From assembly GCA_963680875.1 (NCBI GenBank), contig OY804577.1:108635906-108699905 (forward strand): a DNA stretch of 64,000 bases. Reading direction: 5' to 3'. This DNA comes from Bathymodiolus brooksi (lineage: Eukaryota; Mollusca; Bivalvia; Mytilida; Modiolidae). Shown here piece after piece: positions 5,412-55,844 of this stretch (the first letter of the stretch is position 1; each line of letters starts with the position of its first letter). The notes beneath the pieces are model-generated. The model was not told where the DNA came from, made no database searches, and saw only the letters and a program-made list of their open reading frames with translations. The translations under genes were made by a program, and so were the position numbers.

Positions 5412-5516
5412 TTTCATTGAAGTGCCTGTATCAAGCCAGGAAAGTCATGAGGTCATGTATGTATGTTAGGGAGAGCATCTTTCTACGTTTTTTGATTGGA
5501 TTTTGGAATTGTTCCG
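5412..5516 (+). repeat. dispersed repeat X, 5' part that seeds the minisatellite
   Basis: 'gtgcctgtatcaagccagga', 'gaggtcatgtatgtatgtta' and 'gattggattttggaattg' lead without a break into the first GTTCCGACAGTGTGGTATT unit. The minisatellite unit is therefore the 3' end of this element. Confidence 0.75.
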
Positions 5517-8035
5517 ACAGTGTGGTATTAGAACTGTTCCGACAGTGTGGTATTAGAACTGTTCTGACAGTGTGGTATCTTAGAACTGTTCCGACAGTGT
5601 GGTATTAGAACTGTTCCGACAGTGTGGTATTAGAACTGTTCTGACAGTGTGGTATTAGAACTGTTCCGACAGTGTGGTATTAGAACTGTTCCGACAGTGT
5701 GGTATTAGAACTGTTCTGACAGTGTGGTATCTTAGAACTGTTCCGACAGTGTGGTATTAGAACTGTTCTGACAGTGTGGTATTAGAACTGTTCCGACAGT
5801 GTGGTATTAGAACTGTTCCGACAATGTGGTATTAGAACTGTTCCGACAGTGTGGTATTAGAACTGTTCCGACAGTGTGGTATTAGAACTGTTCCGACAGT
5901 GTGGTATTGTAATTGTTCCTACAGTGTGGTATTCGAAATGTTCCGACAGTGTGGTATTAGAACCGTTCCGACAGTGTGGTATTAGAACCGTTCCGACAGT
6001 GTGGTATTAGAACCGTTCCGACAGTGTGGTATTAGAACCGTTCCGACAGTGTGGTATTAGAACCGTTCCGACAGTGTGGTATTAGAACTGTTCCGACAGT
6101 GTGGTATTAGAACTGTTCCGACAGTGTGGTATTAGAACTGTTCCGACAGTGTGGTATTATAACTGTTCCGACAGTGTGGTATTAGAACTGTTCTGACAGT
6201 GTGGTTCCAACAGTGTGGTATTAGAACTGTTCCGACAGTGTGGTATTAGAACTGTTCCGAGAGTGTGGTATTAGAACTGTTCCGACAGTGTGGTATTAGA
6301 ACTGCTCCGACAGTGTGGTATTAGAACTGTTCCGACAGTGTGGTATTAGAACTGTTCCGACAGTGTGGTATGCGAACTGTTCCGACAGTGTGGTATTCGA
6401 ACTGTTCCGAGAGTGTGGTATTCGAACTGTTCCGACAGTGTGGTATTAGAACTGTTCCGACAGTGTGGTATTAGAACTATTCCGACAGTGTGGTATTAGA
6501 ACTGTTCCGACAGTGTGGTATTAGAACTGTTCCGACAGTGTGGTATTAGAACTGTTCCGACAGTGTGGTATTAGAACTGTTCCGACAGTGTGGTATTAGA
6601 ACTGTTCTGACAGTGTGGTATCTTAGAACTGTTCCGACAGTGTGGTATTAGAACTGTTCTGACAGTGTGGTATTAGAACTGTTCCGACAGTGTGGTATTA
6701 GAACTGTTACGACAATGTGGTATTAGAACTGTTCCGACAGTGTGGTATTAGAACTGTTCCGACAGTGTGGTATTAGAACTGTTCCGACAGTGTGGTATTG
6801 GAATTGTTCCTACAGTGTGGTATTCGAAATGTTCCGACAGTGTGGTATTAGAACCGTTCCGACAGTGTGGTATTAGAACCGTTCCGACAGTGTGGTATTA
6901 GAACTGTTCCGACAGTGTGGTATTAGAACCGTTCCGACAGTGTGGTATTGGAACCGTTCCGACAGTGTGGTATTAGAACTGTTCCGACAGTGTGGTATTA
7001 GAACTGTCCCGACAGTGTGGTATTAGAACTGTTCCGACAGTGTGGTATTAGAACTGTTCCGACAGTGTGGTATTATAACTGTTCCGACAGTGTGGTATTA
7101 GAACTGTTCTGACAGTGTGGTTCCGACAGTGTGGTATTAGAACTGTTCCGACAGTGTGGTATTAGAACTGTTCCGACAGTGTGGTATTAGAACTGCTCCG
7201 ACAGTGTGGTATTAGAACTGTTCCGACAGTGTGGTATTAGAACTGTTCCGACAGTGTGGTATACGAACTGTTCCGACAGTGTGGTATTCGAACTGTTCCG
7301 AGAGTGTGGTATTCGAACTGTTCCGACAGTGTGGTATTAGAACTGTTCCGACAGTGTGGTATTAGAACTGTTCCGACAGTGTGGTATTAGAACTGTTCCG
7401 ACAGTGTGGTATTAGAGCTATTCCGACAGTGTGGTATTAGAACTGTTCCGACAGTGTGGTATTAGAACTGTTCCGACAGTGTGGTATTAGAACTGTTCCG
7501 ACAGTGTGGTATTAGAACTGTTCCGACAGTGTGGTATTCGAACTGTTCCGACAGTGTGGTATTAGAACTGTTCCGACAGTGTGGTATTAGAACTGTTCCG
7601 ACAGTGTGGTATTAGAACTGTTCCGACAGTGTGGTATTAGGACTGTTCCGACAGTGTGGTATTAGAACTGTTCCGACAGTGGGGTATTAGAACTGTTCCG
7701 ACAGTGTGGTATTAGAATTGTTCCGACAGTGTGGTATTAGAACTGTTCCGACAGTGTGGTATTAGAACCGTTCCGACAGTGTGGTATTAGAACTGTTCCG
7801 ACAGTGTGGTATTAGGACTGTTCCGACAGTGTGGTATTAGAACTGTTCCGACAGTGTGGTATTAGAACTGTTCCGACAGTGTGGTATTAGGACTGTTCCG
7901 ACAGTGTGGTATTAGAACTGTTCCGACAGTGGGGTATTAGAACTGTTCCGACAGTGTGGTATTAGAATTGTTCCGACAGTGTGGTATTAGAACTGTTCCG
8001 ACAGTGTGGTATTAGAACTGTTCCGACAGTGTGGT
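5517..8035 (+). repeat. 25-bp minisatellite, about 100 units, with higher-order structure
   Basis: The unit is ATTAGAACTGTTCCGACAGT plus GTGGT (25 bp), repeated head to tail for 2.5 kb. Variants (ttct for ttcc, gaaccg, gaattg, 'tatcttag', truncated 'gtggttccgacag') recur in order. Landmarks at 5728/6619, 5905/6796 and 6369/7260 are each 891 bp apart, so a ~0.9 kb block was duplicated. A second block at 7681/7931 repeats at 250 bp, exactly ten units. No coding role is likely. Confidence 0.97.
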
Positions 8036-8212
8036 ATTTTATTAATCACTTGTGTGTATTTTTGATATTTAAAAAAATGTATATTTTACAGTTTACCAAA
8101 TATAGTCTTACTGTAACTATTTATTTTATATTTTTTTCCTTGATTAATTGATTGGCGTTTAACGTATTTAGGTAAAAAAAAGGCGTCACTATTAATGGGC
8201 GTATAAGGGGTC

Positions 8213-15103: not shown

Positions 15104-16060
15104 TTATACATTTTCACTATATGAAAATGCATCGCTTATAATTTTTTCTGCAGAGACGGAATATATTTCGACAAGATATTGGTATCGGAATATAAACTTT
15201 TTAAGAGATCGAATAAGGCGAATCTTTTTATAGCCCTGGTCCAGTAGCCTGTTTCTCAGATGAAGATGACGTTTCATGAAATCAGAATAATTGCTACTGG
15301 CCCTTGCATAGCGAATCAATTGCGAGATGTAAACACCATATGCAGGAGAAGCTGGTATATTGCTGCACATGTTTGGAAAATTTATGATTTTAAAATTGAA
15401 GTCGTCCCGCTTATCATAAATTTTAGTACTGAGTTGACCACTGTCGTCAAATTCGAGGTATAAGTCCAAAAATGATGCGGACGAAGCTGTATCGGTGGTC
15501 TCTTTATCTTCCAGCTCTGGAGGATATATCAATGGAAGAAATTCTGCAAATCTAGAATTATTGATATATAAAACGTCATCAATATACCTGTATGTGAAAT
15601 TAAAGGCTCTAGCCTCATGAATCTTCTTATCTTTTACAAGCTTTTGAAGAAACTCCGACTCATATGAGTATAAAAATAAATCGGCTAGAAGAGGGGCACA
15701 ATTCGTACCCATTGGTATGCCGACGACCTGCTGAAACAGTGTCCCTCCAAAGGAGACAACTATGTTATCGATGAGGAACTCCAGCATACTGATCACTTGT
15801 TCCTCGGAGTAGCATGTTTTACCTTTATGAATTTTGTTTGAAAAATATGTGGAATTGTAGCCTAACACAACAAATTTTGAGCCATAGTTTCTATGACTAA
15901 AAGCTTTATGAATTGTTTCTTTTAAGCAGGTTTTTAATTTGTCATGCGGTAGGGTGGTATATAGAGTTGAAAAATCAAAAGTTTTGATGGAGGATACCTG
16001 AGAGAAAGATCTTGATTTCAGGTTATCCAAAAGATCTTTAGAGTTTTTCAAAATCCACAT
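15104..16060 (-). pseudogene. Penelope-like reverse transcriptase, N- and C-terminally incomplete
   Basis: An open frame of 318 residues carries the RT core in order: FDFSTLYTTLPHD (residues 28-40, finger/palm motif A region), GIPMGTNCAPLLADL (114-128), YRYIDDVL (157-164, the catalytic YIDD box), SFLDL (196-200) and YDKRDDF (215-221), then SNIP and SQLIRYAR. This ordering is that of Penelope-like and related single-ORF metazoan RTs, not of LTR or typical LINE RTs. The frame starts at an internal Met; upstream, related sequence (KMAFIAG) continues on the same strand but is cut off by a stop and a frame change, so the N-terminus is broken. No GIY-YIG endonuclease follows the stop. The enzyme would copy element RNA into DNA. 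This copy is probably dead, although the core itself is uninterrupted. Confidence 0.85.
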
Positions 16061-31238: not shown

Positions 31239-31636
31239 CTAGATTTTGGTGATACAATAAGGTGATGACTGTAATTTGGTGATACAATAAGGTGATGACT
31301 GTAATTTGGTGATACAATAAGGTGATGACTGTAATTTGGTGATACAATAAGGTGATGACTGTAATTTTGTGATACAATAAGGTGATAACTGTAATTTGGT
31401 GATACAATAAGGTGATGACTGTAATTTGGTGATACAATAAGGTGATGACTGTAATTTGGTGATACAATAAGGTGATGACTGTAATTTGGTGATACAATAA
31501 GGTGATGACTGTAATTTGGTGATACAATAAGGTGATGGCTGTAATTTGGTGATACAATAAGGTGATGACTGTAATTTGGTGATACAATAAGGTGATGACT
31601 GTAATTTGGTGATACAATAAGGTGATGACTGTAATT
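31239..31636 (+). repeat. 30-bp minisatellite, about 13 units
   Basis: The unit GGTGATGACTGTAATTTGGT plus GATACAATAA is almost perfectly conserved. Because 30 is a multiple of three, all minus-strand frames stay open and give repetitive pseudo-proteins; these are artefacts. The high unit identity suggests recent expansion. Confidence 0.97.
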
Positions 31637-35013: not shown

Positions 35014-35425
35014 ATATTATTTTTAAGTGAAAAAATATATCGGCAAACGAGAAACCTGTATACTAAAACTATTTATAAAATCATCACATCTTACTGTACA
35101 TGTAGAATGTTCATCTATTATGTTCGCTTATCTAAATCTGGCCTAGGTTATATTACCATACATTAATTTTGAGGTCAGGAACAGTTTTCATCACCCACTT
35201 TGACTTATAGTGACACTGTATTACTCTTTTTTCAAAAGTGCAAAACCTTACCTGAGAATGTTTTGTTTCCTAGAAATACATGTCATAGATTATCTTTGAT
35301 GCTTTAGGAATTGAAATATGACAGTGATGTTCCTGTCATTGTTGTCAAAAAGATTACAAATGTGTTATGAACTGCATGCATCTGTCAATTGATCTTTAAA
35401 AATCTAAATACATATACTACAATAA

Positions 35426-35670
35426 TGTCGTACCGAGTGCAAATATATATTAGACACGCGAGTGTAGGGATGCGTGTAAATATGTAATACTAACCTATAA
35501 ATAATAAATATTCCAGGTCAGGAAACAATCATACAAATTACAATGAAATGTGGACAATCATGCAATGGATACACGTGGTTGAAGGTGGCAAGAAGTGACG
35601 TCACATATATCTGTCTATAGATGGCTTCCGTGTAATACTCCATAAATGGTGCACCTCCGAATGCACCACA
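35426..35670 (-). repeat. 3' LTR
   Basis: 245 bp, TGTCGTACCGAG ... AATGCACCACA on the plus strand. Contains a palindromic CRE-type TGACGTCA (35,596-35,603) and a CACGTG E-box (35,572-35,577). Differs from the other LTR at two positions. Confidence 0.97.
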
Positions 35671-35684
35671 CTCCTCCCCTCCCT
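35671..35684 (-). other. polypurine tract
   Basis: Minus-strand AGGGAGGGGAGGAG directly abutting the 3' LTR, the expected primer for plus-strand DNA synthesis. Confidence 0.9.
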
Positions 35685-36036
35685 GTAGAAGCTATCCTAC
35701 ACCTAGATAACATGTTCATCAACACGAACAAAAAAGAAATAATAAAATAAAAAAAATCCAGAGCTACTAGACCAATAATTTAAATGCAAGATACCTTCGC
35801 TGCATCCCAAATAAACAAAGGAGAGGATAAATAAAAAAACAGCAATCTTAACCTCAAAAAAATCATTTGTAAAATAAAGAGTGATTATGTACAACAAAAC
35901 ACACCATTTAACATCAGTATATAAGAAATGCAGACAACTATCAGTTAACTTGAGGCGAAGCTGCATGCCCCAGCACTCCTGTTAACAATAAACTCAAATG
36001 AAACAGTATTACTCCACTGGTACCAGATAAAAGAGG
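35685..36036 (-). other. 3' untranslated region of the retrotransposon
   Basis: Between the TatD stop and the polypurine tract. Holds a sixth copy of the recurrent motif (35,954-35,976). Otherwise A/T-rich without coding signal. Confidence 0.7.
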
Positions 36037-37937
36037 CTATCGTTTACTGTCCAACCCGTAGAATTGTATGGTATTCTGGTTGATGGCCGTCATGAGCACA
36101 CTAAGGGGAACATTCCTGAGTCTACCGACTTCCTGTGCCACTACCTCCAGATTCCATGGATGATTAATTTTACATTCTGGGTAGGGTGGCAGGAAAGGAG
36201 CATCAGTTTCCAAAAGGATTTCCTTAGTTTCCATTCTGGCCACACTATCAGCAGAGGCTCTATCAGTAACTGTCTTCCAAGTGACTCCAAAACGGACATG
36301 TGGAAGCGACCTCCACTCCAGAAGCTCCTCATAGGTCCCGGTAAAGCAGTGGCGGTGATACTTCAGGTCTGTTAGTCCAGTCTCTTTGATCACTTGCAAT
36401 GTTTTGCTGGCAGCCTGTCCAGTTCCATTGTCCCTACAGTGCAAAACAACAGGCAGGTTCCGATCTCTGGCTAAGAATAGCATCCCTATCAGAGCCTCCT
36501 CCTGATTCCGGGCCATCCTCCCTCTACATTCATTCTCATTTGTGCACATTGGGTCGCACCTGCAACGGGTGGTATGGTCAATCCCAATCTCGCCAACAGC
36601 TACACATTTCGACTCTACCAGAAGGCTACCAAGTTGGTCTAATTGGGAGCGTGTTACCCCATGAGCAGCTATATGTGGATGTATCCCAAAGGTGACAAGC
36701 AGCTGTTTTGACCCCTCAATGTGCTCTCTCCATCTGTTCCAACTCCTTGGGAATACATAGTTGCATACTCCATAGATCAGGGTGGCGGAACAATTTGGCG
36801 CAGCAATAATCTGCAGGTGCTGAAAACCACGAAGACGTTCACGCTGGATAATCAGGTCTAAATGAAAATGACTGTCTATTATATCTATCCGTGGTCCAGA
36901 ATCCTCTTCTTCCTCTTGTCGAGCTCGGACTAGATCTCTCACTACATTCATTCCAGTGGCAGTTAACTTCCTATGGCTGTTCCGGAACTGCTCTTGTCTA
37001 CTACTTCCAACACGTGACAGTAGCACTGATGTCAACTCCCAGTTGATAAGGCATATGACGTGGTTCGGTGGGTTCACGGTGAACTCTTCTGGTTCGTCAT
37101 CACTGTAGTTGGTGGCATAAAACTGTAGCAAGGGGATGTCGTCATCTGTAAACCCACTCCTGGCGTCCTGATATAACTGGTGCTGGATAACATGTCGGAG
37201 TAAATCATCAAGTGAGTCACACTTTAGCCATGTTGCAAGTAGAAATAACCCACCATTTACCAGCTGACACCAATCATGAGAGTATGGTTTATCGCTGCTT
37301 TACCTCTCTGTGCTTCCTGCTGATGGCAAATCCAACAAGCAGTGGTGGGCATCCAAAACCAGGGAAAATGCTTTCGCATTACATGCCTTCTAGGACGGTC
37401 AACCTTTCCAAGACAGACGGGACAGGAACGGATCCTCTTGGATTTCGACCTAGATTGTCGTATCGTCTCTAATACTAACGGTGCCTCTAACATGTCTGAA
37501 ACGAAGCGGATTGCCTCAGTACCAGGACATGCTGCTGATTCCGGTTCCTCCCGTCTGGTTTTATCTCTAGTTGCAGTTGAGGCGGGGCAGGTAGCCTCAG
37601 ACCCAGTACAATCACCACTGGCCAGTCTTCCATATATTCCCTCATCAATCACTTGTCTTGAAGCCTGTGGAGGAGGTTCTTCCAGACTTGTCATCTCCTG
37701 ATCTGATGCAAGACATTCATCTACCACCAAATAATCAGACCCTAAACCCGATAATGAACCAGTATGAGGGGAGGAGTGCCTACTGGACAGAACACTTTCA
37801 CTATTGCCAGAACCTGGGTCCATCTCCTCTGCCTTAGAACTGCTCTTTAGACTGGTCTCCGATGGAGTATATGGTCCGTAGTCCAAACAATCAATGTCAT
37901 ACATGTCATACTCTGTTGGCCTTTCCTGTGATTCCAT
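36037..37937 (-). pseudogene. zinc-finger + TatD-family metal-dependent nuclease (third ORF), one frameshift
   Basis: The ATG at 37,937 opens 226 codons: an acidic/Ser-rich N-terminus, a C2H2 finger (C172-x2-C175 ... H185-x4-H190) and a second Cys pair CWIC (201-204). Between about 37,257 and 37,300 the frame shifts by -1 into a frame carrying a full TatD domain. Numbered from its internal start at 37,131, the metal-site motifs are DSHFHLD (H88, H90), VGEIGID (E181), VVLHCRD (H231), HRHCFTG (H261) and ETDAPFLPP (D310). TatD enzymes are TIM-barrel, divalent-metal nucleases acting on DNA or RNA; TATDN2 members act on RNA. A Cys cluster (C190, C192, C196, C202) interrupts the domain just after E181. 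The ORF lies 74 bp after the integrase stop, where env would be. Its role in the element is unknown. Confidence 0.9.
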
Positions 37938-38011
37938 AACTGCAATTACAGATTAAGACGGATTATCAATAACTATTTACACTATTTACATCCTATATAT
38001 ATATGCGTCTT

Positions 38012-39994
38012 CTAAGACACATAATCTCTCAGATGGGAAGGCTTCCGTATTGTCCTTCCCTTGGTAGACACACCGACAGTGTCCCCATCTTGTGCCTCTG
38101 GCGGAGCTTCACGCCCCAACACAGACTTGTCAGCATCTTGGCCGGGAACCCGAAAATCAGTGGGATAGGCCTGCTTAGTACTATTATCATCGTCTGTCTG
38201 CTCATCTGCAGGTCCCCACTGGCTGTCCTTACCATCGTCCTTCGTTCCAGTACCTGGTCCATCCAAACTAGAGGGTCCTAGTAAAGGGAACCCATCGCAG
38301 TATGGAAGTGTTTCATCAGGATCAATGCCTGATTGTTCTAGATCAGGCATGGGGGTGTTAAACAAATCATGACGTAGCTTCCGGAGCCACAGGGGAATGT
38401 GTCTATCGTGACATCTTTTCAGACGGTCATGGTGTACCACGTACTCCCTTTTCTTATCCTGGATACGATACAGTGGAGGACGGCTGCCAATGACGAGGAA
38501 TGGTCCCATCCATGGCGAACGTAGTTTACTGCTCTGTCCTATTTTGGACGACGAATCCAGTTTGTATACAAGATCGCCTTCTTGGTAGGCATGCTGCACT
38601 ACGTGCAAATCGTAATCTCTTTTCTGCCTGGCCTGACTGGTACGGAGGTTATCTCTGGCAAATTGGTGTACTTCTCGCAGACTATCTGCCAGTTTTACGA
38701 CCCAGCTGTCAGGATCCAGTTGTTCTTGACATTGTTGTGGGATGCCTAAAAGTAATTGTACAGGTTGAATAGTCTCCCTTCCAAGCATAAGCTTGTTTGG
38801 AGTATAGCCAGTTTGGCGGTTGACCATAGAGTGGAGAGCCATTGAAAGAAGAGGAATATTTTTGTCCCAGCGTCTACTTTTCTTTTCAATATAGCAGCGT
38901 ATCATCTGTAGCAGCACCGTGTTGAATCTTTCGATTTGACCATTGGATGAGGGATGATACGGGGTCGTCCGTGTCTTAGCTACCTCTAGTATGGTACATA
39001 ATGACTTGAAAAGGTTCCCGGCAAAATTTCGTCCCTGATCGGTGTGCACCTCAAGTGGGCAACCAAAAGTAACCACAAAATGAACAACAAACTTTTCAGC
39101 GATGGTTAAGGCTGCCTGCTCTGGAATGGCCGCCATCTCCACCCACTTTGTAAACTGATCGATCATCATCAATACATACCGGTTACCATCTTCACTGGTG
39201 TTGAAGGGCCCCAAAATGTCAAGGTGAACTCGTTCCATGGGGAACCCTGCGTGGAATGATTGCAAACCGGCCCGTGGTTTTATATGGAGTTTCTTATTTT
39301 GATTGCATGTGTTACATGTTTTGACATATTGAATACAGTCCTTAGACATGTTGTACCATATAAAAGACTGCTTCACTCTCTCTAATGTTTTCCTTTGGCC
39401 AAGATGACCTGACGATCGGCTGTCGTGACAAAATTGTAACACTTCCGACTGGAGGCCTCTGGGAACTACCAAACAAAGGTCCTTGCCCGGCCTTTCAATC
39501 CACTGATAGTATAGAACCCCTTCTCTAAATACCAGACAGTCGCGACAAAGCCATAGGGCCCGGGTGGCTGGTCCATGAAGCCTTAGAACAGAATCAGTTG
39601 GAGTCTGCTTAGATTCCAACCAATCAATCATGGGTTGCAGGTCATGATCTTCTAGCTGTAAGGAACGGATCTCGAGTTGAGAATAACTGGGTGCCCAATT
39701 ACTAGTTTTAGAAAAATCCTCCTGATAAGGAATAGTCTCATCCGGGTCAAACTCATGGACTGTTGTGTCCTGTTCATGGCTAATTGATGAACGCGGTGCT
39801 TTACGCCCCAGCAGGTTCACTTGCGAATCAGCACCATCATCCCCAGGATTCACTTTGACAGTTTTAACTGACAAGGGCACTACATCATCCACATCCTCTG
39901 TAAATCTGAACCATTGGTGATGTGCCCGAACACAGTATGCACAACCTCCACACGGGAGGGACTCAGGAACTGCTCCAGCGTGTAGCAGTCGCAT
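38012..39994 (-). pseudogene. pol: integrase region of pol
   Basis: Open frame of 660 residues. The zinc-binding HHCC module is H190, H197, C227, C230. The catalytic triad is D259 (HLDILGPF), D319 (VHTDQGRNF) and E355 (NGQIERFN), and a GPF motif lies at 497-499 (WMGPFLVI). The C-terminal ~130 residues are an acidic, Gly/Ser-rich tail with no chromodomain. Two linkers share the phrase DPDETxPY (84-90 and 559-565), and each has an LGRxAP motif nearby (62-67 and 626-631). The enzyme would insert the cDNA into the genome. The frame is out of phase with the RNase H frame by one base, with the switch near 39,990. All catalytic residues are present, so the protein itself looks undamaged. Confidence 0.95.
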
Positions 39995-40497
39995 TCTGTC
40001 ATTTTATCGGGCATTCTGCTCAAGCTGTCTTCATTAAGGTGTTTCTTCCCTGGACGGTGCACAATCTGTATGTCGTACTGTGCCATCTCCTCCAGCCATC
40101 TGGCTAGTTGTCCCTCTATGTGCTTAAATCTTGTGAGCCAGACCAAACTGTTGTGATCTGTCCGCAGCGTGAATCGGCGTCCTAGAAGGTAGTGTCTGAA
40201 ATACCTACAAAATTTCACCACTGCTAACAGCTCCTTTCTTGTAGTACAATAATTGCGTTGGACTTTTAGCAACACGTGGCTAGCATAGCAGATCACTTTT
40301 GTACCCTCTTTCTGAATCTGTGAAAGGACGGCTCCAATTGATAAATCTGACGCATCGGTGTCGAGAATAAAGTGTCCGTCCGGTGTGGGATAAGCCAAAC
40401 AAGGAGCAGAGATAAGGGCTAACTTGGTTCTTTCAAACGCTTCAGTGTGTGTGGCCTCCCAAATTGGCATATCTGTGGCGTGCGCCAAGTCATACAA
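39880..40497 (-). pseudogene. pol: RNase H region of pol
   Basis: 205-residue frame holding the Ty3-type RNase H: D48 (LDTDASD), E89 (TTRKELLAVV), D114 (LRTDHNSL) and D157 (LNEDSLSR), with the W-rich ARWLEEMAQYDIQIVHRPGK stretch before the last. It degrades the RNA strand of the RNA/DNA hybrid during reverse transcription. It is separated from the RT frame by an in-frame stop (40,575-40,577) and a -1 frame change near 40,500. Its own C-terminus runs out of frame past about 39,990. Residues needed for activity are intact. Confidence 0.93.
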
Positions 40498-40574
40498 GGA
40501 AGCGTCATTTCAGCAAAGTCTGAAACATGATCCCGATGATAATTTGCAAAGCCAAGGAATGACATGAGTTCTTT

Positions 40575-42284
40575 TTATGTATTTGGCATGGGCCATTTCT
40601 TGACAGCGTTTACCTTTGATGGCGAGACTGACACACCTTTTGCACTTACTAATTTTCCAAGAAATTCAACCTCATCTTTAAAAAGCTCACATTTCTTGGG
40701 CTTTAACTTGAGATTGAACTCACGGAATCTGTAAAGCACATTCCTCAAATTACGAAGTCCATTCTCAAATGACTTCCCTAAGACTATAATATCATCCAAA
40801 TACACTAAAACCTGTGTCCAGGTCAGGCCCCTCAGAACCAACTGCATGGCTCTTTGGAAAGTAGCCGGTGCGTTGCACAGGCCGAATCCCATGCGTGTGT
40901 GCTCAAATAGACCATAACGGGTTATGAATGCGGTCTTCTGTCTGGACTCCTCGTCAAGCTCGATTTGGTAATACCCACTAGCCATATCTAACGTACTAAA
41001 ACAAGTCGTTCCTTGGAGGGTATCCAAGCAGTCTTCAATTATAGGGAGCGGATAACAATCTTTTGTGGTCCTATCATTAACAACACGGTAATCCACACTC
41101 CACCTGACTGTACCATCTTTCTTTCGGACCAAGACTGGAGCTGACGCCCAAGACGAGGTGGAGGGCTGTATTACTCCTGCATTAAGCATCTTGGTAAGAT
41201 GTTGCTGCTCATGTTCCTGAAAACCAAGTAGTGTTCTTCTCATCTTTTGCTTCACAGGTGTGGCATCCTTCGTATCGATCTTGTGCTTTACCGCGGTTAA
41301 ACATCCCAGATCTAGGTCGTGTTTTGCAAAGACATCCTGGTATTCTATTAACAAAGACTTCAGTTTCTTACGCTCCTCAGGATTTAGCCCTTTGATAGCA
41401 CGATCATACATGTTCCCCAGGTGTGGTGGAATGATGTCACTTGGTTCATTCTCAGTCTCTGTATTTAACTTAGACTGTTTGATTTGGATGTCTGGTGACC
41501 ACAGAGTATTTTGCGAAGCATTATGCCCCAGCACCTCTGTGGAACATTCCATCAGACCTGAAACAGCCTCTGTTTGTCCCAGTACAGTATCTTTTCTAAG
41601 TTTCACATACTGGTTGCTATCATTTACTAGGTTAACTGGACAAACATTTCCAGTACACAAACTGCTTGCAATGAGGACTTTAGTAATTGGCACTGGTTCC
41701 ATAATGAAGTTGCCCCTTAATGGTTCTTTGAGTGGAACAGCTACAGTCATCATGGAATTCGGGGGAATCTTGATCGTCTCATGCAGTAATATCCGTGCAA
41801 CACTGTTTTCTGTTGTCTGGTTAGCAACCAACTTGGCTTGAATTAATTCCCCATTTATCTTAACTGTCTCGGCTCCTAATCTTATTACTGCTTTATGGGC
41901 TTCAAGAAAATGAAGTCCCAATATCAAGTCATCTCGTAAGGGAGCTGTGCATACGTCCCAAGTAATTGTCTGGCTACCAATCTTAATATGTACGTTCTTC
42001 ACAATGCGCCCATACACTAATTGTTCTCCAAGTCCTCTGAGCTTCACAAGTCCTTCATCTCCATGTTCTTCTCCACAAATTAACTTCTCATTTACTAATG
42101 TGATCATCGCTGCAGTGTCAACTACAACTTTTACTGGTATATCATTCAGAAAGGCATTCATCAGGAGATGCTTGCCGGAAGTGTGCCTTACCATCACTTC
42201 AGTTTCCGCTATACTAGACTGGCCTAATTCTGAGTTATTCCGGGCCAAGCGTTGGCCGCTGGGCTTGACCCTTTCTTGTTTAAA
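40575..42284 (-). pseudogene. pol: protease and reverse transcriptase region of pol
   Basis: Open without a stop from the frameshift site at 42,284; no AUG is needed. Numbered from 42,248: the aspartic protease has VVVDTAAMIT (catalytic D44, a D-T-A variant) and the second-half motif LILGLHFLE. The RT follows with VRWSVDYRVVN, FSTLDMASGYYQIEL, GFGLCNAPATFQRAM and the catalytic VLVYLDDII (YLDD 483-486), then ECLF/EFLG-type thumb motifs (CELFKDEVEFLG). The frame ends in TAA at 40,575-40,577, within the sequence leading into RNase H, which continues in the same frame just beyond the stop. The stop is therefore a lesion. A recurrent-motif copy (VLGHNAS, about 238-244) lies between protease and RT. 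Confidence 0.95.
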
Positions 42285-44717
42285 TCCTCACTTTCTCTAT
42301 CTGAACCGGTGGATGTGTCTCTTCTTCGGAATGGAGCATTCCTGCCACCACGATTTTGAGTCCTATGTCCCTGGTATGGTGAGGGAGAACGAGATCTAGT
42401 CTGTCTGGATTGGTCCTGTCCCCTGTAACCAGTTGGTGGAGTAGGCGACCGATATCTGTGTCGTTGAAATCTTGTTGGTGCCCCTTCAGGGCTCTTGGCT
42501 CTTGCCACTATATTGTCATTGACAGCCACACTTAGCTTTTGTACTACCCCAACTAAATTCCGCAACTCATCTTCCAGAGAAGAGCTTGGCTTCTCTTGTA
42601 CCTTTTTCTGGTTTCGTTCTGGTGTACTGGATCTATCTGAAAAGGAGACTTGTCTGTGAGCATAACTGTGGCTTGTTCGGACTCCAAATATGGCACGCTG
42701 GTTAGCTATGTATGTCTTGACCATTTTCACAGCCTGAGTAATGGAAGACGGGTCTTTTTCAAGAACACTTCTTGCAGCTTCTTTGTCTCTGCACCCACGA
42801 AGGAATGCTTCCGTGGCTATCTGGTCTACGACTTCCGGATTCCCCTTATCAAAACCATCCAGCGCCATAAAATATATTCTTTGAGAGAATTCTTCTAATG
42901 GCTCACTTTCCTGTTGTCTCATAAACTGTAATTGTCGCCTCTTTTGTGCTAAAACGTCTGCGCAAGTCTTCTCCCAAGACATTGTATTCCACACTAGTGT
43001 TATGAACTTTACGTGTGTACTCTAATGCGGAATCTGTTAAGCAGTCTAATAATTTGCATGTTTTCGTTTCTCCAATCCACCCTTTGCGACCTGCAGTTCG
43101 TTCGAATTGATACATGAATGCTTCAAAAGTAGGTTTTCCTGAGCCACTAAACAGTGGCATCTTGGGTGGTTGTGGACTTTTACTCTTGGCTCGAGTTCTA
43201 GCATATTCTGACCAGCGCGAGTATTCTTGATCAAAAGACTCATCATCAGACGAATCTATGTCTTTTCTACGGCCTCTTTCTCTTTTCCTTCCTCGAGACT
43301 GTCCACTTACTTTTTGTCCTCCACTGTCTGCAATGATATGCGGAGCTTCACGCCCCAGCGGTGCACTAGCAGACTGCTGCCCAGTAGCAACTGTGGTAGG
43401 AGGCGTGCTTGTTGTTACTATATTTGCCCCTATTCGAGGAGGAAATTCTTGATTCATTATATTTGACCATTGGTAATTCGGATTCGTTGGGATTAGGCTA
43501 CTGGCTTGAATCAGGTCACCTAACGGGCCCTGGACAAATTGCGGAGTACCAAACCCCAGCAAGGGCGGTGGTGGTACCTGAAACATCTGATTGTACAGTT
43601 GTGAACCAGAAACTGGTATGCTCTGTGTACTGGCTAAAGGAGGTGTAACATTATTTCCATATGATCCTGATACATGTTGTACTGGCATATTTGTGCCACT
43701 GACTGTGGGGAGTCTTTCAGTTGGTCCATGGGTACTTGATGGGTGTACGTATGATCCACCAGTCATGGGCATGTTCCCATATGATCCCTGCATGTTTGGT
43801 AACAGTGTCTTCTGATCACCCATTGTTGGAATATTACCAAGCTGTCCTGGCATATTAGGTGGAGGCAACCCTGGAACAACACCGACCATGGGTAAGTTCC
43901 CAAACTGTCCTTGTATAGATGGCGGAGCAATCTGCCCCAGCGGAAGTACTGGACTGTTTGTGGATATCATGTTTACCTGATTAGTTGGCGGACTGATATG
44001 CGCCGGTTCAGGTGCAACGGTATTTTGGTTTTGTGGCGGTGGCATACCATGTATGTTGTTGACCCCAGTTGTAGCTTTTGGCAATACAGGTGGTAGTGTT
44101 AAATGATTTTGAATGGGGGATACCAATGGCTGTGTGACAAAATCAGCAGTAGCAAGATTATCATGAATAGGTGTGCTAGCTGTTGGATGTTGCTTTTCCA
44201 ATTTTTTATCTTCTGTCTTATATGCTGGTATTCCATATATCTTAGGCTTTGCCCCTTTTTCTTCAAAGTCTTTGACTACATCCATTGTTTTGCTGATGAA
44301 TTCTTTCTGTTTTTGTATTTCTTCTTGATGTGGTCCTTTTAACTCTATTAAGCTGTCATCAAAATGGTGTTTCTTTGCCCCTGGGTCCCCTAGTATAGTT
44401 TTGCCGGCACCTTTAATGGATTTCTTGGGTTCTAGATTTGAGGGTGAAGCTGCACTCAAAAATAGTTCACTCTTTTTCTTTTCCTCCAATAGTTGCTTAT
44501 TCTGTTGTATGATTTCATTCAACAGTGGCGACAAAGTAGATGAGAATGCTTCTGCAAGGGCTGAAGCAATGGCCTTTGTTTGGTCTCCACTTGCTTGCAT
44601 AGGTGGTTGATCCTCCGGTTCTGTAACTGTTATGTTCAGTTCTTGATTCTCAGAAGTGTCAACCTCCTGCAACCCTAGGGCTCCTTTATCAGCGCCAGCT
44701 TCCAAATCAGACATCAT
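42224..44717 (-). pseudogene. gag: gag, split by one frame change
   Basis: The ATG at 44,717 starts MMSDLEAGAD. Residues 1-100 are acidic with a helical stretch (SPLLNEIIQQNKQLLEEKKK); about 180-450 is Pro/Gly/Asn-rich and probably disordered, then a basic Arg/Ser stretch. Capsid-like sequence starts near residue 515 (MPLFSGSGKPTFEAFMYQFE, LLDCLTDSALEY). Near 42,940 the frame changes; the second frame continues the capsid (LQFMRQQESEPLEEFSQR, IATEAFLRGC). It ends in an Arg/Ser/Pro-rich basic tail without any CCHC zinc knuckle. Gag would form the particle and package RNA, here apparently through the basic tail. The frame change sits in the middle of the capsid, so it is a lesion rather than a programmed event. 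Confidence 0.93.
42242..42284 (-). promoter_or_regulatory. -1 programmed ribosomal frameshift signal
   Basis: On the minus strand the heptamer T-TTA-AAC (42,284-42,278) lies in the gag frame, 54 nt before the gag stop. A 6-nt spacer AAGAAA follows, then a 9-bp stem GGGTCAAGC / GCTTGGCCC (one G-U pair) with a 12-nt loop. A -1 slip enters exactly the protease-RT frame, which is open from that point. Spacing and phase are textbook. Confidence 0.88.
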
Positions 44718-45621
44718 TTAACACTGATTTTCAAGGCTCAAAAATTGTATGTAAAATACCAGTAAGATTTATTTATTATTATATCCTATTTGCCTGTGTG
44801 TATGTGTGTATCACAGTGTAAACATGAATAGGTATGCAGATACACTATGTATGTATGTAGGTACGTATGTGTATGTATGTATATGTGTATATGTATGTAT
44901 ACGTGTATATGTATGTATATGTGTATATGTATGTATATGTGTGACTTGAGTCAAAGTACAAACTATCTCAAATCACAGTAACAAATATCTCAGATCACAA
45001 TTTGTTTTGCGACCAAAGAAAATACAACAATATATCTCAAGTTAATATCAACCCAAGACAATACACAATCAATTAATAATCAAATATCTCAAATCAAAGT
45101 ATGCTCTGACCCAAAACGAAATATAATATTTGTGTATGTATGCTGGTGTAATGTTTTGTTGTTGTTTGTTTGTTTTTTTTTTTTTATGTTTTGTTTGTTG
45201 TCTCTTGAAAATAACAAACAGATTTAATTTTCACTGTAAATCAATTTATATGACAGCAAAAATATTAAATTTCAATTCAAAAATATCAAAATGTAAACAT
45301 ACCTTACGTATGTCAACACAAAACAGCTGATTCAAATTTGTTTGCATACGGGAGTCAGTTCCCCGGATGTTACTTCTCATTATCACTTCCTGCAAGAAGC
45401 CCTTAATGGCCGACTTCAGAAATTTCCAGTCTACGACACATATACACAAATTTATTTCTCGAAAATGAGGGTATTTTAGCACGAAAATTTCATCAAAATC
45501 AATGTGTATCGCGATTCTGTGTATTTTTATGTCATCACACGTAAATCCTAAAAATAAAAGTTTTACAAAAATTTGAAAAAATTCGAAAGCGGGAAAATTG
45601 TGAAGTTGAAATATCAGATTT
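44718..45621 (-). other. retrotransposon 5' leader
   Basis: About 0.9 kb between primer site and gag. It includes repeated 'aatatctcaaatcaaag'-type phrases, a poly-T tract near 45,172-45,184 and the TATG microsatellite. A 142-residue frame crossing the primer site (45,246-45,674) is judged spurious. Confidence 0.6.
44786..44942 (+). repeat. TATG/TGTA microsatellite
   Basis: Imperfect tgtatgtatatgtgtatatg repeats just upstream of the gag start, inside the retrotransposon leader. Confidence 0.9.
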
Positions 45622-45641
45622 GAATCCTGTCGACGACGCCA
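45622..45641 (-). other. primer-binding site, tRNA-Ser type
   Basis: Minus-strand TGGCGTCGTCGACAGGATTC starts one base inside the 5' LTR. Its complement, ...GAATCCTGTCGACGACGCCA, has the T-arm and acceptor form of a eukaryotic tRNA-Ser 3' end plus CCA. The exact isoacceptor cannot be fixed without the species' tRNA set. Confidence 0.85.
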
Positions 45642-45642
45642 A

Positions 45643-45887
45643 TGTCGTACCGAGTGCAAATATATATTAGACACGCGAGTGTAGGGATGCGTGTAAATAT
45701 GTAATACTAACCTATAAATAATAAATATTCCAGGTCAGGAAACAATCATACAAATTACAATGAAATGTGGACAATCATGCAATGGATACACGTGGTTGAA
45801 GGCGGCAAGAAGTGACGTCACATAGATCTGTCTATAGATGGCTTCCGTGTAATACTCCATAAATGGTGCACCTCCGAATGCACCACA
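45643..45887 (-). repeat. 5' LTR
   Basis: Direct repeat of 35,426-35,670; differs at a GGTGG/GGCGG and an ATATATC/ATAGATC site. Carries the same TGACGTCA (45,813-45,820) and CACGTG elements, likely promoter inputs for minus-strand transcription. Confidence 0.97.
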
Positions 45888-45891
45888 ATAA

Positions 45892-54764: not shown

Positions 54765-55020
54765 ATTTATTGTGTTTAACGCCACTTTCAGCAATATTTC
54801 AGCTATATCGTGGCGACCAGTTTTAGAGGTGGAAGAAGCCGGAGTACCCGGAGAGAACCACCGACCATGGGCAAGCAACTGGTAAACTTTATCACTTGCA
54901 GCTGCGAGTCGAGTGCACCCTTTTGTAATTTACACAGCCGGGCGCCAACCCACGCCATATTGGTGATAGGTTTGTATGAGTTGTTAGGTAATCCAACCAC
55001 CTAACTAATTGAACCACCCG
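54765..55020 (-). mobile_element. SINE family A, minus strand, variant head
   Basis: Reverse of the tail (GTGTTTAACGCCACTTTCAG), the body ('ggagtacccggagagaacc') and a tRNA-like head. On the minus strand the head runs GGGTGGTTCAATTAGTTAGG (A-box region) to GTGGGTTGGCGCCCGGC (B-box region). The head differs from that of the 8.2 and 31.7 kb copies, so this is a sub-family. Confidence 0.8.
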
Positions 55021-55828
55021 GGCCCCCTACAACCACCTAACTCATTGAACCACCCGGGCCCCATACAACCACCTAACTAATTGAACCACCCGGGCCCCCT
55101 ACAACCACCTAACTCATTGAGTCACCCGGGCCCTACAACCACCTAACTCATTGAACCAACCGGGCCCCCTACAACCACCTAACTAATTGAACCACCCGGG
55201 CCCCCTACAACCACCTAATTCATTGAGTCACCCGGGCCCTACAACCACCTAACTAATTGAACCACCCGGGCCCTACAACCACCTAACTCATTGAACCACC
55301 CGGGCCCCCTACAACCACCTAACTCATTGAACCACCCGGGCCCCCTACAACCACCTAACTCATTGAGTCACCCGGGCCCTACAACCACCTAACTCATTGA
55401 ACCACCCGGGCCCTACAACCACCTAACTCATTGAACCACACGGGCCCTACAACCACCTAACTAATTGAACCACCCGGGCCCTACAACCACCTAACTCATT
55501 GAGTCACCCGGGCCCTACAACCACCTAACTAATTGAACCACCCGGGCCCTACAACCACCTAACTCATTGAACCACCCGGGCCCCCTACAACCACCTAACT
55601 CATTGAACCACACGGGCCCTACAACCACCTAACTAATTGAACCACCCGGGCCCTACAACCACCTAACTCATTGAGTCACCCGGGCCCTACAACCACCTAA
55701 CTCATTGAACCACCCGGGCCCCCTACAACCACCTAACTCATTGAACCACCCGGGCCCCCTACAACCACCTAACTCATTGAACCACCCGGGCCCTACAACC
55801 ACCTAACTAATTGAACCACCCGGGCCCT
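54993..55828 (-). repeat. 34-36-bp minisatellite derived from the SINE head, about two dozen units
   Basis: Plus-strand unit CTACAACCACCTAACTCATT GAACCACCCGGGCCC, with alternatives 'ctaatt', 'gagtcacc', 'cacgggcc' and ccc/ccccc length variants. The unit is the reverse complement of the A-box side of the adjoining SINE, so the array grew from the SINE's 5' end. Confidence 0.95.
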
Positions 55829-55844
55829 AAAATAAAACGAAAAA

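What the first reader, a model, noticed from the sequence alone, without database searches (positions are those of the whole stretch)
36037..37937. A Ty3/Gypsy retrotransposon carries a zinc-finger-TatD nuclease where env would be
Seen: between integrase and the polypurine tract, inside near-identical LTRs, lies an ORF with a C2H2 finger, a CWIC pair and all TatD metal-site motifs (HxH, GEIGID, VVLHCRD, HCFTG, ETDAPF). Known: TatD proteins are metal-dependent nucleases and TATDN2 acts on RNA; Ty3 elements normally add env or nothing here. Inference: the nuclease is a captured gene used in the element's life cycle, for example trimming RNA/DNA hybrids, removing template RNA or acting against a host defence. 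I know of no standard description of such an element, and 'TATDN2-like' gene expansions in bivalves may be copies of it.
Basis: partly seen in the sequence, partly recalled or inferred. Interest (0 to 1): 0.92.

Follow-up and report, generated by a model that had tools for sequence, protein, structure and literature searches.

The report
Retrotransposon family carrying a TatD nuclease
A group of virus-like jumping genes in what is probably a mollusc, with relatives in oysters and mussels, carries a zinc-finger TatD nuclease as a long-conserved third gene in the place where related viruses keep their envelope gene; what the nuclease does for the element is not known.

Summary
A Ty3/Gypsy element (35426-45887, minus strand) carries a zinc-finger/TatD gene between integrase and the polypurine tract. 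In this copy a 34-bp deletion splits the gene into two frames; five other copies have one open frame of 624-649 aa. It is no one-off passenger: 15 of 15 window-family integrase loci found keep all or part of it, seven further families of this genome have it at the same place, and between families it is under purifying selection (omega 0.17; integrase 0.10). Bivalve proteins share the layout. New here: a second finger, a conserved helical segment, and a splice-acceptor-like site 0-15 nt before the start codon in 7 of 7 readable families, which suggests an env-like spliced mRNA. Against strict need: in one distant lineage 25 of 33 integrase loci have no TatD match (3 of 3 checked lack it), and a deleted derivative has lost the gene. 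Best reading: a separately expressed accessory nuclease, probably nuclear, acting on RNA:DNA hybrids or nucleic-acid ends; a role against host silencing remains open. Nuclease ORF3s have a precedent (DEDDy, bdelloid rotifers); no TatD one was found in my searches.

The parts
35426..35670 (-). 3' LTR, TGTGG...CGACA
45643..45887 (-). 5' LTR, 2 differences from the 3' LTR
35422..35425 (.). target-site duplication TTAT (3' side); partner at 45888-45891
35671..35683 (-). polypurine tract GGGAGGGGAGGAG
   Evidence: the 20 nt before the 3' LTR are identical in 10 of 12 fetched F1 loci
45621..45641 (-). presumed primer binding site after the 5' LTR (TTGGCG...)
   Evidence: sequence; no tRNA was matched
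45297..45305 (-). candidate splice donor AAG|GTATGT, the only site scoring 6 of 7 or better in the 1600 nt after the 5' LTR
   Evidence: function inferred
42903..44717 (-). gag, N-terminal ORF (separate frame in this copy; continuous with the next in L055)
   Evidence: no Pfam hit
42224..42994 (-). gag, C-terminal ORF
   Evidence: no Pfam hit above cut-off
40575..42248 (-). protease-reverse transcriptase ORF (RVT_1 1.7e-30)
39880..40497 (-). RNase H ORF (7.8e-33), four motif patterns present
38012..39994 (-). integrase ORF; three motif patterns and GPF present
37940..37959 (-). splice-acceptor-like site 2 nt before the ATG of the TatD gene
   Evidence: function inferred
37257..37937 (-). N-terminal half of the zf-TatD gene: acidic region, basic KSKRIR stretch, fingers
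37368..37424 (-). first C2H2-like finger (CPVC...H...H)
   Evidence: by pattern
37275..37337 (-). second C2H2-like finger (CWIC...H), cut short in this copy by the deletion
37278..37279 (-). site of a 34-bp deletion relative to copy L053, which shifts the frame
36037..37299 (-). C-terminal half: helical segment with PPNHVICL..W, and TatD domain
   Evidence: helices from the model of P0001
36055..36879 (-). TatD domain; DSHFHLD 36856-36876, GEIGID 36577-36594, LHCRD 36430-36444, HRHCF 36343-36357, ETDAPF 36193-36210

Best explanation
The window holds a broken copy of a Ty3/Gypsy LTR retrotransposon belonging to a set of element families whose third gene, between pol and the 3' LTR, encodes a protein with an acidic N-terminus, one or two C2H2-like fingers, a helical segment and a Group II (HxH) TatD metallonuclease. 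Shown: element structure, recurrence at one place, homology over the multi-domain protein, purifying selection between families. Inferred: the gene is expressed from an env-like spliced mRNA by way of the acceptor just before its ATG; the protein enters the nucleus, binds nucleic acid by its fingers, and trims or cuts RNA:DNA hybrids or 3' ends that arise when the element is transcribed, reverse-transcribed or integrated (as TATDN2 acts on R-loops). It can be dispensed with, or supplied in trans, in some subfamilies. My estimates: element gene 0.97; active nuclease 0.85; spliced expression 0.75; substrates of the element's own cycle rather than of host silencing about 0.45.
For: 18 of 20 fetched TatD loci have integrase just upstream on the same strand; 1 (L044) has only protease-region sequence there, 1 (L041) is a TatD-LTR fragment; the F1 LTR lies downstream in 12 of 12 window-family loci fetched. 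15 of 15 window-family integrase loci found keep all or part of the gene. Distant lineages L051 (RT 55%, TatD 30% identical) and L056 have the same order. Profile match A2-A3, probability 99.9, E 2e-35, from the first finger through the helical segment to the end of TatD. TatD omega 0.171, lnL gain 319.8 over omega 1; L051-L052 NG86 0.208. Model of P0001: TatD part mostly above pLDDT 90; best PDB matches are TatD nucleases, TATDN3 among them. Acceptor in 7 of 7 families against 5 of 35 other ORF starts. Highest 19-residue hydropathy below 1.6 in 6 of 7 proteins, 1.62 in P0009, so no clear envelope-like membrane anchor. RNase H and integrase motifs are present in the window and L031, so TatD does not replace a lost pol activity there. 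TATDN2 has RNA 3' exo- and endonuclease activity on R-loops (PMC12709183, passages).
Against: No transcript, protein or activity was seen. 25 of 33 L051-type integrase loci have no TatD match; 3 of 3 fetched confirm the absence, and five of the 25 have pol frames of 1524-1525 aa. A deleted derivative (13 tail matches, 1 fetched) has lost most of the gene. Within the window family omega is 0.75. Only 6 of 14 own-genome rows match all five metal-site patterns; 8 dead or diverged copies miss at least one. Pfam sees no finger; no second finger by pattern in P0016, P0018, P0019, P0031, P0032 and L051.
Confidence: 0.6

Rival explanations
1. Counter-defence: the nuclease destroys host nucleic acids that silence the element (piRNA precursors, nascent RNA hybrids, immune DNA or RNA) rather than processing the element's own intermediates.
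For: Probably separate expression; pol already has RNase H; TatD-less copies coexist with TatD-bearing ones in the same genome; TatD nucleases serve in conflict elsewhere (QatD model matched far below its cut-off, 57.7 against 230 bits; parasite TatDs on extracellular traps, PMC10085689 passages).
Against: No target is known; constraint on the active site suits either role.
Confidence: 0.28
2. The protein is mainly a nucleic-acid-binding export or packaging factor, like CERV of Cer1, and the TatD fold is used for binding.
For: Spliced non-env third protein precedent (PMC10309623, abstract and passages); finger patterns at the N-terminus.
Against: Metal-site residues nearly invariant in the 22-row alignment; 26 of 31 homologues match all five motif patterns; omega 0.17.
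Confidence: 0.1
3. The gene is translated by reinitiation or readthrough after pol, and the acceptor-like sites are T-rich spacer.
For: The spacers are mostly AT-rich; a chance site arises in 0.09-0.25 of shuffles per family; in the window the ATG lies about 75 nt after the pol stop.
Against: Joint shuffle probability 5.2e-6, and 7 of 7 against 5 of 35 controls.
Confidence: 0.22
4. A one-off captured passenger with no role.
For: This copy's gene is broken; some subfamilies lack it.
Against: Recurrence across families and species and omega 0.17.
Confidence: 0.02
5. The TatD gene was acquired or exchanged several times among element lineages rather than inherited from one element ancestor (compatible with the best explanation).
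For: In the integrase tree L051 and L056 sit apart among 120 pols whose TatD status is unknown; at least 3 changes of the label. Mixed pol and 3'-region identities in L057 and L058 point to recombination.
Against: The same finger-helical-TatD protein in the F clade and L051 points to one ancestor of the protein itself.
Confidence: 0.45

Closest known systems
Bdelloid rotifer LTR retrotransposons (Juno, Vesta) with DEDDy exonuclease or GDSL esterase ORF3 (PMC5408684; outline, abstract and section 3.3)
   Same: Enzymatic, non-envelope ORF3 in a retrovirus-like LTR element; one type is a nuclease; shared between unrelated element lineages.
   Different: Different enzyme fold (DEDDy, not TatD), other hosts; no zinc fingers mentioned in the section read.
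Ty3/Gypsy (Metaviridae) elements with env
   Same: PR-RT-RH-INT order, LTRs, TSD, GPF motif; third gene in the env place with an acceptor-like site before it.
   Different: Third gene is a TatD protein without a clear membrane anchor.
Cer1 CERV (PMC10309623; abstract and passages)
   Same: Non-env accessory protein from a spliced mRNA of an LTR retrotransposon.
   Different: CERV has no obvious homology outside nematodes and is not a known nuclease.
TATDN2/TATDN3, Group II TatD proteins (PMC10085689 and PMC12709183; abstracts and passages)
   Same: HxH-type TatD fold and metal-site motifs; TATDN2 has a long N-terminal region that often holds an NLS.
   Different: Here fused to finger patterns and a helical segment and carried by an LTR element. 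No TATDN2 sequence was compared.
Orchid Ty3/Gypsy elements with an m6A demethylase domain (PMC9289625; title and start of abstract in a listing only)
   Same: Ty3 element with an acquired enzyme domain.
   Different: Other enzyme, plants.

Membership tests
Ty3/Gypsy (Metaviridae) LTR retrotransposon | PR-RT-RNaseH-integrase in that order | tested here: met
Ty3/Gypsy (Metaviridae) LTR retrotransposon | LTRs with TG...CA ends and a 4-6 bp TSD | tested here: met
   TTAT
Ty3/Gypsy (Metaviridae) LTR retrotransposon | GPY/F motif in integrase | tested here: met
   WMGPFLV read directly in the ORF
env-bearing (errantivirus-like) element | envelope glycoprotein with a membrane anchor in the third ORF | tested here: not met
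   third ORF is TatD; hydropathy maxima 0.92-1.62 in 7 proteins
Troyka LTR elements | 5'-CG...CG-3' termini and 3-bp TSD | tested here: not met
   TG...CA and 4 bp; defining features from the abstract of PMC12440569
TatD nuclease family (PF01026) | profile match above the curated cut-off | tested here: met
   151.9 bits against 27
TatD nuclease family (PF01026) | metal-site motifs HxH, GExGxD, H, H, D (set recalled) | tested here: met
   all five patterns in the window and in 26 of 31 homologues; patterns were loose (P0013 and P0033 match by variant residues); the other five are fragments or, P0022, differ beside the HxH; 6 of 14 own-genome rows match all five
TatD nuclease family (PF01026) | nuclease activity | not testable with these tools
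   needs an assay
C2H2 zinc finger | profile match to a finger family | tested here: not met
   no Pfam finger at E <= 1 in the N-terminal half or at E <= 0.1 in P0001, P0019, P0031, L051; C-C-H-H spacing patterns are conserved, so it looks like a finger but is not filed under a family
TATDN2 orthologue | falls in the TATDN2 clade | not tested
   only the Group II HxH motif was checked; the tree held other TatDs as outgroups, no TATDN
DEDDy ORF3 elements | DEDDy exonuclease fold | tested here: not met
   third ORF is TatD

The most novel reading that the evidence does not exclude
A whole assemblage of mollusc Ty3/Gypsy lineages has for a very long time used a zinc-finger-guided TatD nuclease, made from an env-like spliced mRNA, as a nuclear weapon or tool against RNA:DNA hybrids, and a good part of the 'TATDN2-like' or 'tatD' genes annotated in bivalves (perhaps also the TATDN2 label in the giant squid Hox cluster and in an oyster heat-tolerance interval) are this retroelement gene.
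Probability: 0.3. Interest if true: 0.88.

Novelty: new variant of a known kind. Interest (0 to 1): 0.73.

Why it matters
A nuclease gene held under selection inside a retroelement says that the standard Ty3 enzyme set is not enough, or not safe, in these hosts. Natural subfamilies with and without the gene in one genome make its role open to comparison. It also warns that 'TATDN2-like' gene counts in bivalve genomes may partly be transposon copies.

Tried and rejected
Viral contigs: two scans (single protein, alignment A1) found no relative. Viral fold library: one hit at E <= 0.001, an uncharacterised Yasminevirus protein (E 1e-10). Considered: TatD replaces a degenerate RNase H; rejected for the window and L031, whose RNase H patterns are all present; in L047, L048 and L050 some patterns were not found in the aligned pieces, which are broken copies. 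Considered: the tail-only matches are independent remnants; the one fetched is an internally deleted derivative. Pairwise NG86 between families was saturated, so a codon model was used; the omega = 1 run also held kappa at 2, and one of ten integrase rows (L044) was dropped as under 40% filled. TatD and integrase trees agree on the families but not on the order of the deep ones, so strict co-inheritance is not shown. A search with part of L051 pol showed no protein with both pol and TatD domains among the 120 shown of 925. In one search, 52 of the 85 TatD matches were entered (the other 33 are further pieces of the same or neighbouring places; by eye none lies near an integrase locus counted as TatD-less).

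Literature searched (papers holding the terms / listed): TatD + retrotransposon 14/14; TATDN2 + oyster 2/2; Ty3-mollusc-LTR-additional ORF 47/20; LTR-captured-host gene-bivalve 251/20; TATDN2 69/30; TatD + transposable element 27/25; deoxyribonuclease-TatD-expansion-bivalve 21/15; Gypsy-PHD-integrase-bivalve 25/10. No TatD-bearing LTR element was seen in these listings; the papers not listed, Repbase, subscription journals and most preprints were not seen. The mollusc LTR survey PMC6238403 has no occurrence of TatD, nuclease, envelope or PHD in its main text. PMC7264820 (passages) mentions splicing for a plant env-like ORF, no nuclease.

Caveats on the splice-site test: the 20-nt search range and the threshold were set after seeing the cases; for L056 the second ATG of the ORF was taken, which is post hoc (6 of 6 without it); loci with no usable start (L044, L045, L046, L048, L052) were left out, and other F1 loci were not counted separately.

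Full report
What is there. The element lies on the minus strand between LTRs 45643-45887 and 35426-35670, which differ at 2 of 245 positions and are flanked by TTAT on both sides. gag, protease-RT, RNase H and integrase ORFs follow in Ty3/Gypsy order, in several frames in this copy. Between integrase and the polypurine tract lie two ORFs in different frames, 37257-37937 and 36037-37299. They are halves of one gene: copy L053 reads on through the same stretch, and the window lacks 34 bp there. The second half is a TatD nuclease by Pfam (2.7e-44) with all metal-site motifs; the first half carries an acidic region and a C2H2-like pattern. The 'CWIC' pair is the start of a second such pattern, matched whole in 18 of 24 proteins scanned; P0016, P0018, P0019, P0031, P0032 and L051 do not match it. 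Pfam finds no finger family in any protein tested, so 'finger' rests on spacing and conservation.

It is an element gene. The genome is held (2.0 Gb, 136 contigs, unnamed); the TatD query gave 112 matches. The host is probably a bivalve: the named homologues with this layout are bivalve proteins; no name was given. Of 20 loci fetched, 18 have integrase directly upstream on the same strand; L044 has only protease-region sequence and L041 only a TatD-LTR fragment. All 12 window-family loci among them (L031-L042) have the LTR downstream. From the other side, 15 loci carry a window-family integrase (91-100% identity); 14 have a TatD match downstream and the fifteenth, L053, has the N-terminal part and then breaks off. 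Five copies besides the window have one open frame of 624-649 aa without stops (L002-L006). Five older families, whose TatD best matches are 41-49% identical to the window's, have the same order: L043; L044/L047; L045/L046/L048; L049; L050. Two more distant lineages follow suit: L051/L052, whose RT is about 55% and TatD about 30% identical, and L056 (integrase with a PHD-like C-terminus, then an acidic ORF with a C-C-H-H pattern that leads to the TatD match at C3:38566459). At C8:32.54 Mb a 46% integrase also lies just upstream of a 31% TatD match (not fetched).

Selection. Pairwise synonymous change between families is mostly saturated, so a codon model was fitted: omega 0.171 for TatD (10 rows, 413 codons; lnL -8954.5 against -9274.2 at omega 1 with kappa 2) and 0.104 for integrase (9 rows, 391 codons), while within the window family it is 0.753 (13 rows) and 0.841 (11 rows), as expected where most change is decay after insertion. 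The pair L051-L052 gives NG86 0.208 for TatD over 243 codons.

One protein family. Proteins with the same layout come from Mytilus trossulus, Saccostrea cucullata, Crassostrea angulata (P0019: 153 member sequences, 77 contigs) and unnamed sources. Profiles of the main family and of the L051 type match at E 2e-35 from the first finger pattern through a helical segment with a PPN...W motif to the end of TatD, so the fusion is shared, not only the nuclease. In a TatD tree the families of this genome are interleaved with other sources, for example L044/L047 in one group with P0007 and the two Mytilus rows (98/97), so several families are older than these host lineages or have moved between them. 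Against 29 other TatDs the set separates at 100/99, with one further row, P0036, inside it; animal TATDN1-3 were not in that tree and long branches are present. In other named species the link to a retroelement rests on two gene models: P0028 begins with sequence like the element's protease (29% over 103 residues, 5e-10) and P0012 reads on after TatD into RGEECGTT, which fits a PPT and an LTR beginning TGTGGT (my reading).

Structure. The model of P0001 (589 aa, mean pLDDT 80.5) has a disordered N-terminus (1-119), the finger and helical part, and a TatD barrel mostly above 90. The best Foldseek matches are TatD proteins, including YcfH and TATDN3.

How it is probably expressed. In 7 families where a start codon can be read (window, L043, L047, L049, L050, L051, L056), a YAG with at least 10 of 16 pyrimidines before it ends 0-15 nt upstream of the ATG, though the spacers look unlike each other. 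The rate at all ATGs of the same loci is 124 of 1149, at other ORF starts 5 of 35, and composition-keeping shuffles give 5.2e-6 for all seven together. The limits of this test are given under Tried and rejected. Env of simple retroviruses and CERV of Cer1 come from spliced mRNAs (PMC10309623, passages).

What speaks against a strict need. L055 is a derivative that keeps gag, the acceptor and the start of the TatD gene but has lost nearly all of pol and TatD; 12 other places match only the same tail (not fetched). In the L051 type, 7 copies at 99-100% have the whole 651-aa frame with the integrase match 313-314 bp upstream, but of 33 integrase loci of this type (40-41% identity) only 8 have a TatD match; 25 do not. 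All 3 of those fetched (L054, L057, L058) pass from the end of pol to the shared 3' region at the same junction. Since TatD sits at the same place in the other lineages I read this as one loss, but a gain cannot be excluded: in the integrase tree L051 and L056 lie apart among 120 pols of unknown TatD status. L057 and L058 have mixed similarities to L051 (97% at the end of pol with 87% in the 3' region, and 85% with 99%), as recombination would leave. The counts depend on which candidates the tool scored (67 of 2951).

Mechanism. The motifs, the fold and the constraint suggest an active metal-dependent nuclease. Known relatives act on 3' ends and AP sites (TATDN1, TATDN3; PMC10085689, abstract and passages) and, for TATDN2, on RNA in R-loops (PMC12709183 passages; PMC12754012 passages). 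A basic stretch before the fingers (KSKRIR here; RRKKNKGK and ERRKRQ in L051) would suit nuclear entry; this was not scored. I therefore favour a nuclear nuclease on hybrids or ends, with a counter-silencing role as the main rival. Both are inferences.

Known or new. Extra enzyme ORFs in LTR elements are known; the nearest that I saw is the DEDDy exonuclease ORF3 of bdelloid elements (PMC5408684, abstract and section 3.3). No TatD-bearing LTR element was seen in the listings. TATDN2 labels in the giant squid Hox cluster (PMC6962438, passage) and near an oyster heat-tolerance SNP (PMC10778899, table passage) could be such copies; this was not tested.

Noticed in passing
P0125: A Ty3 pol whose integrase C-terminus holds an in-frame Tpt1/KptA RNA 2'-phosphotransferase domain (PF01885) just before a PHD finger; next to L051 in the integrase tree (support 90).
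   Followed up: partly
L051, L056 and most of the 120 pols listed: PHD finger (PF00628) at the C-terminus of integrase; named sources include molluscs, sea urchin, crinoid. Perhaps a targeting domain.
   Followed up: no
L057 and L058: TatD-less L051-type elements with discordant pol and 3'-region similarities, as if subfamilies recombine.
   Followed up: partly
L046, and C10:101.59-101.74 Mb: Tandem-like repeats of an integrase-finger unit at about 2.1-kb spacing beside the TatD copy, in two similar blocks.
   Followed up: no
window 5506-8038: 25-bp tandem satellite, about 100 units.
   Followed up: no
window 31245-31636: 30-bp tandem repeat, 13 copies, 98% matches.
   Followed up: no
window 54994-55829: 34-bp tandem repeat, 24 copies, in a stretch with strong GC skew.
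   Followed up: no
window 15104-16060 (-): 318-aa ORF that looks like a reverse transcriptase (YRYIDDVL, motif recalled), probably another retroelement.
   Followed up: no
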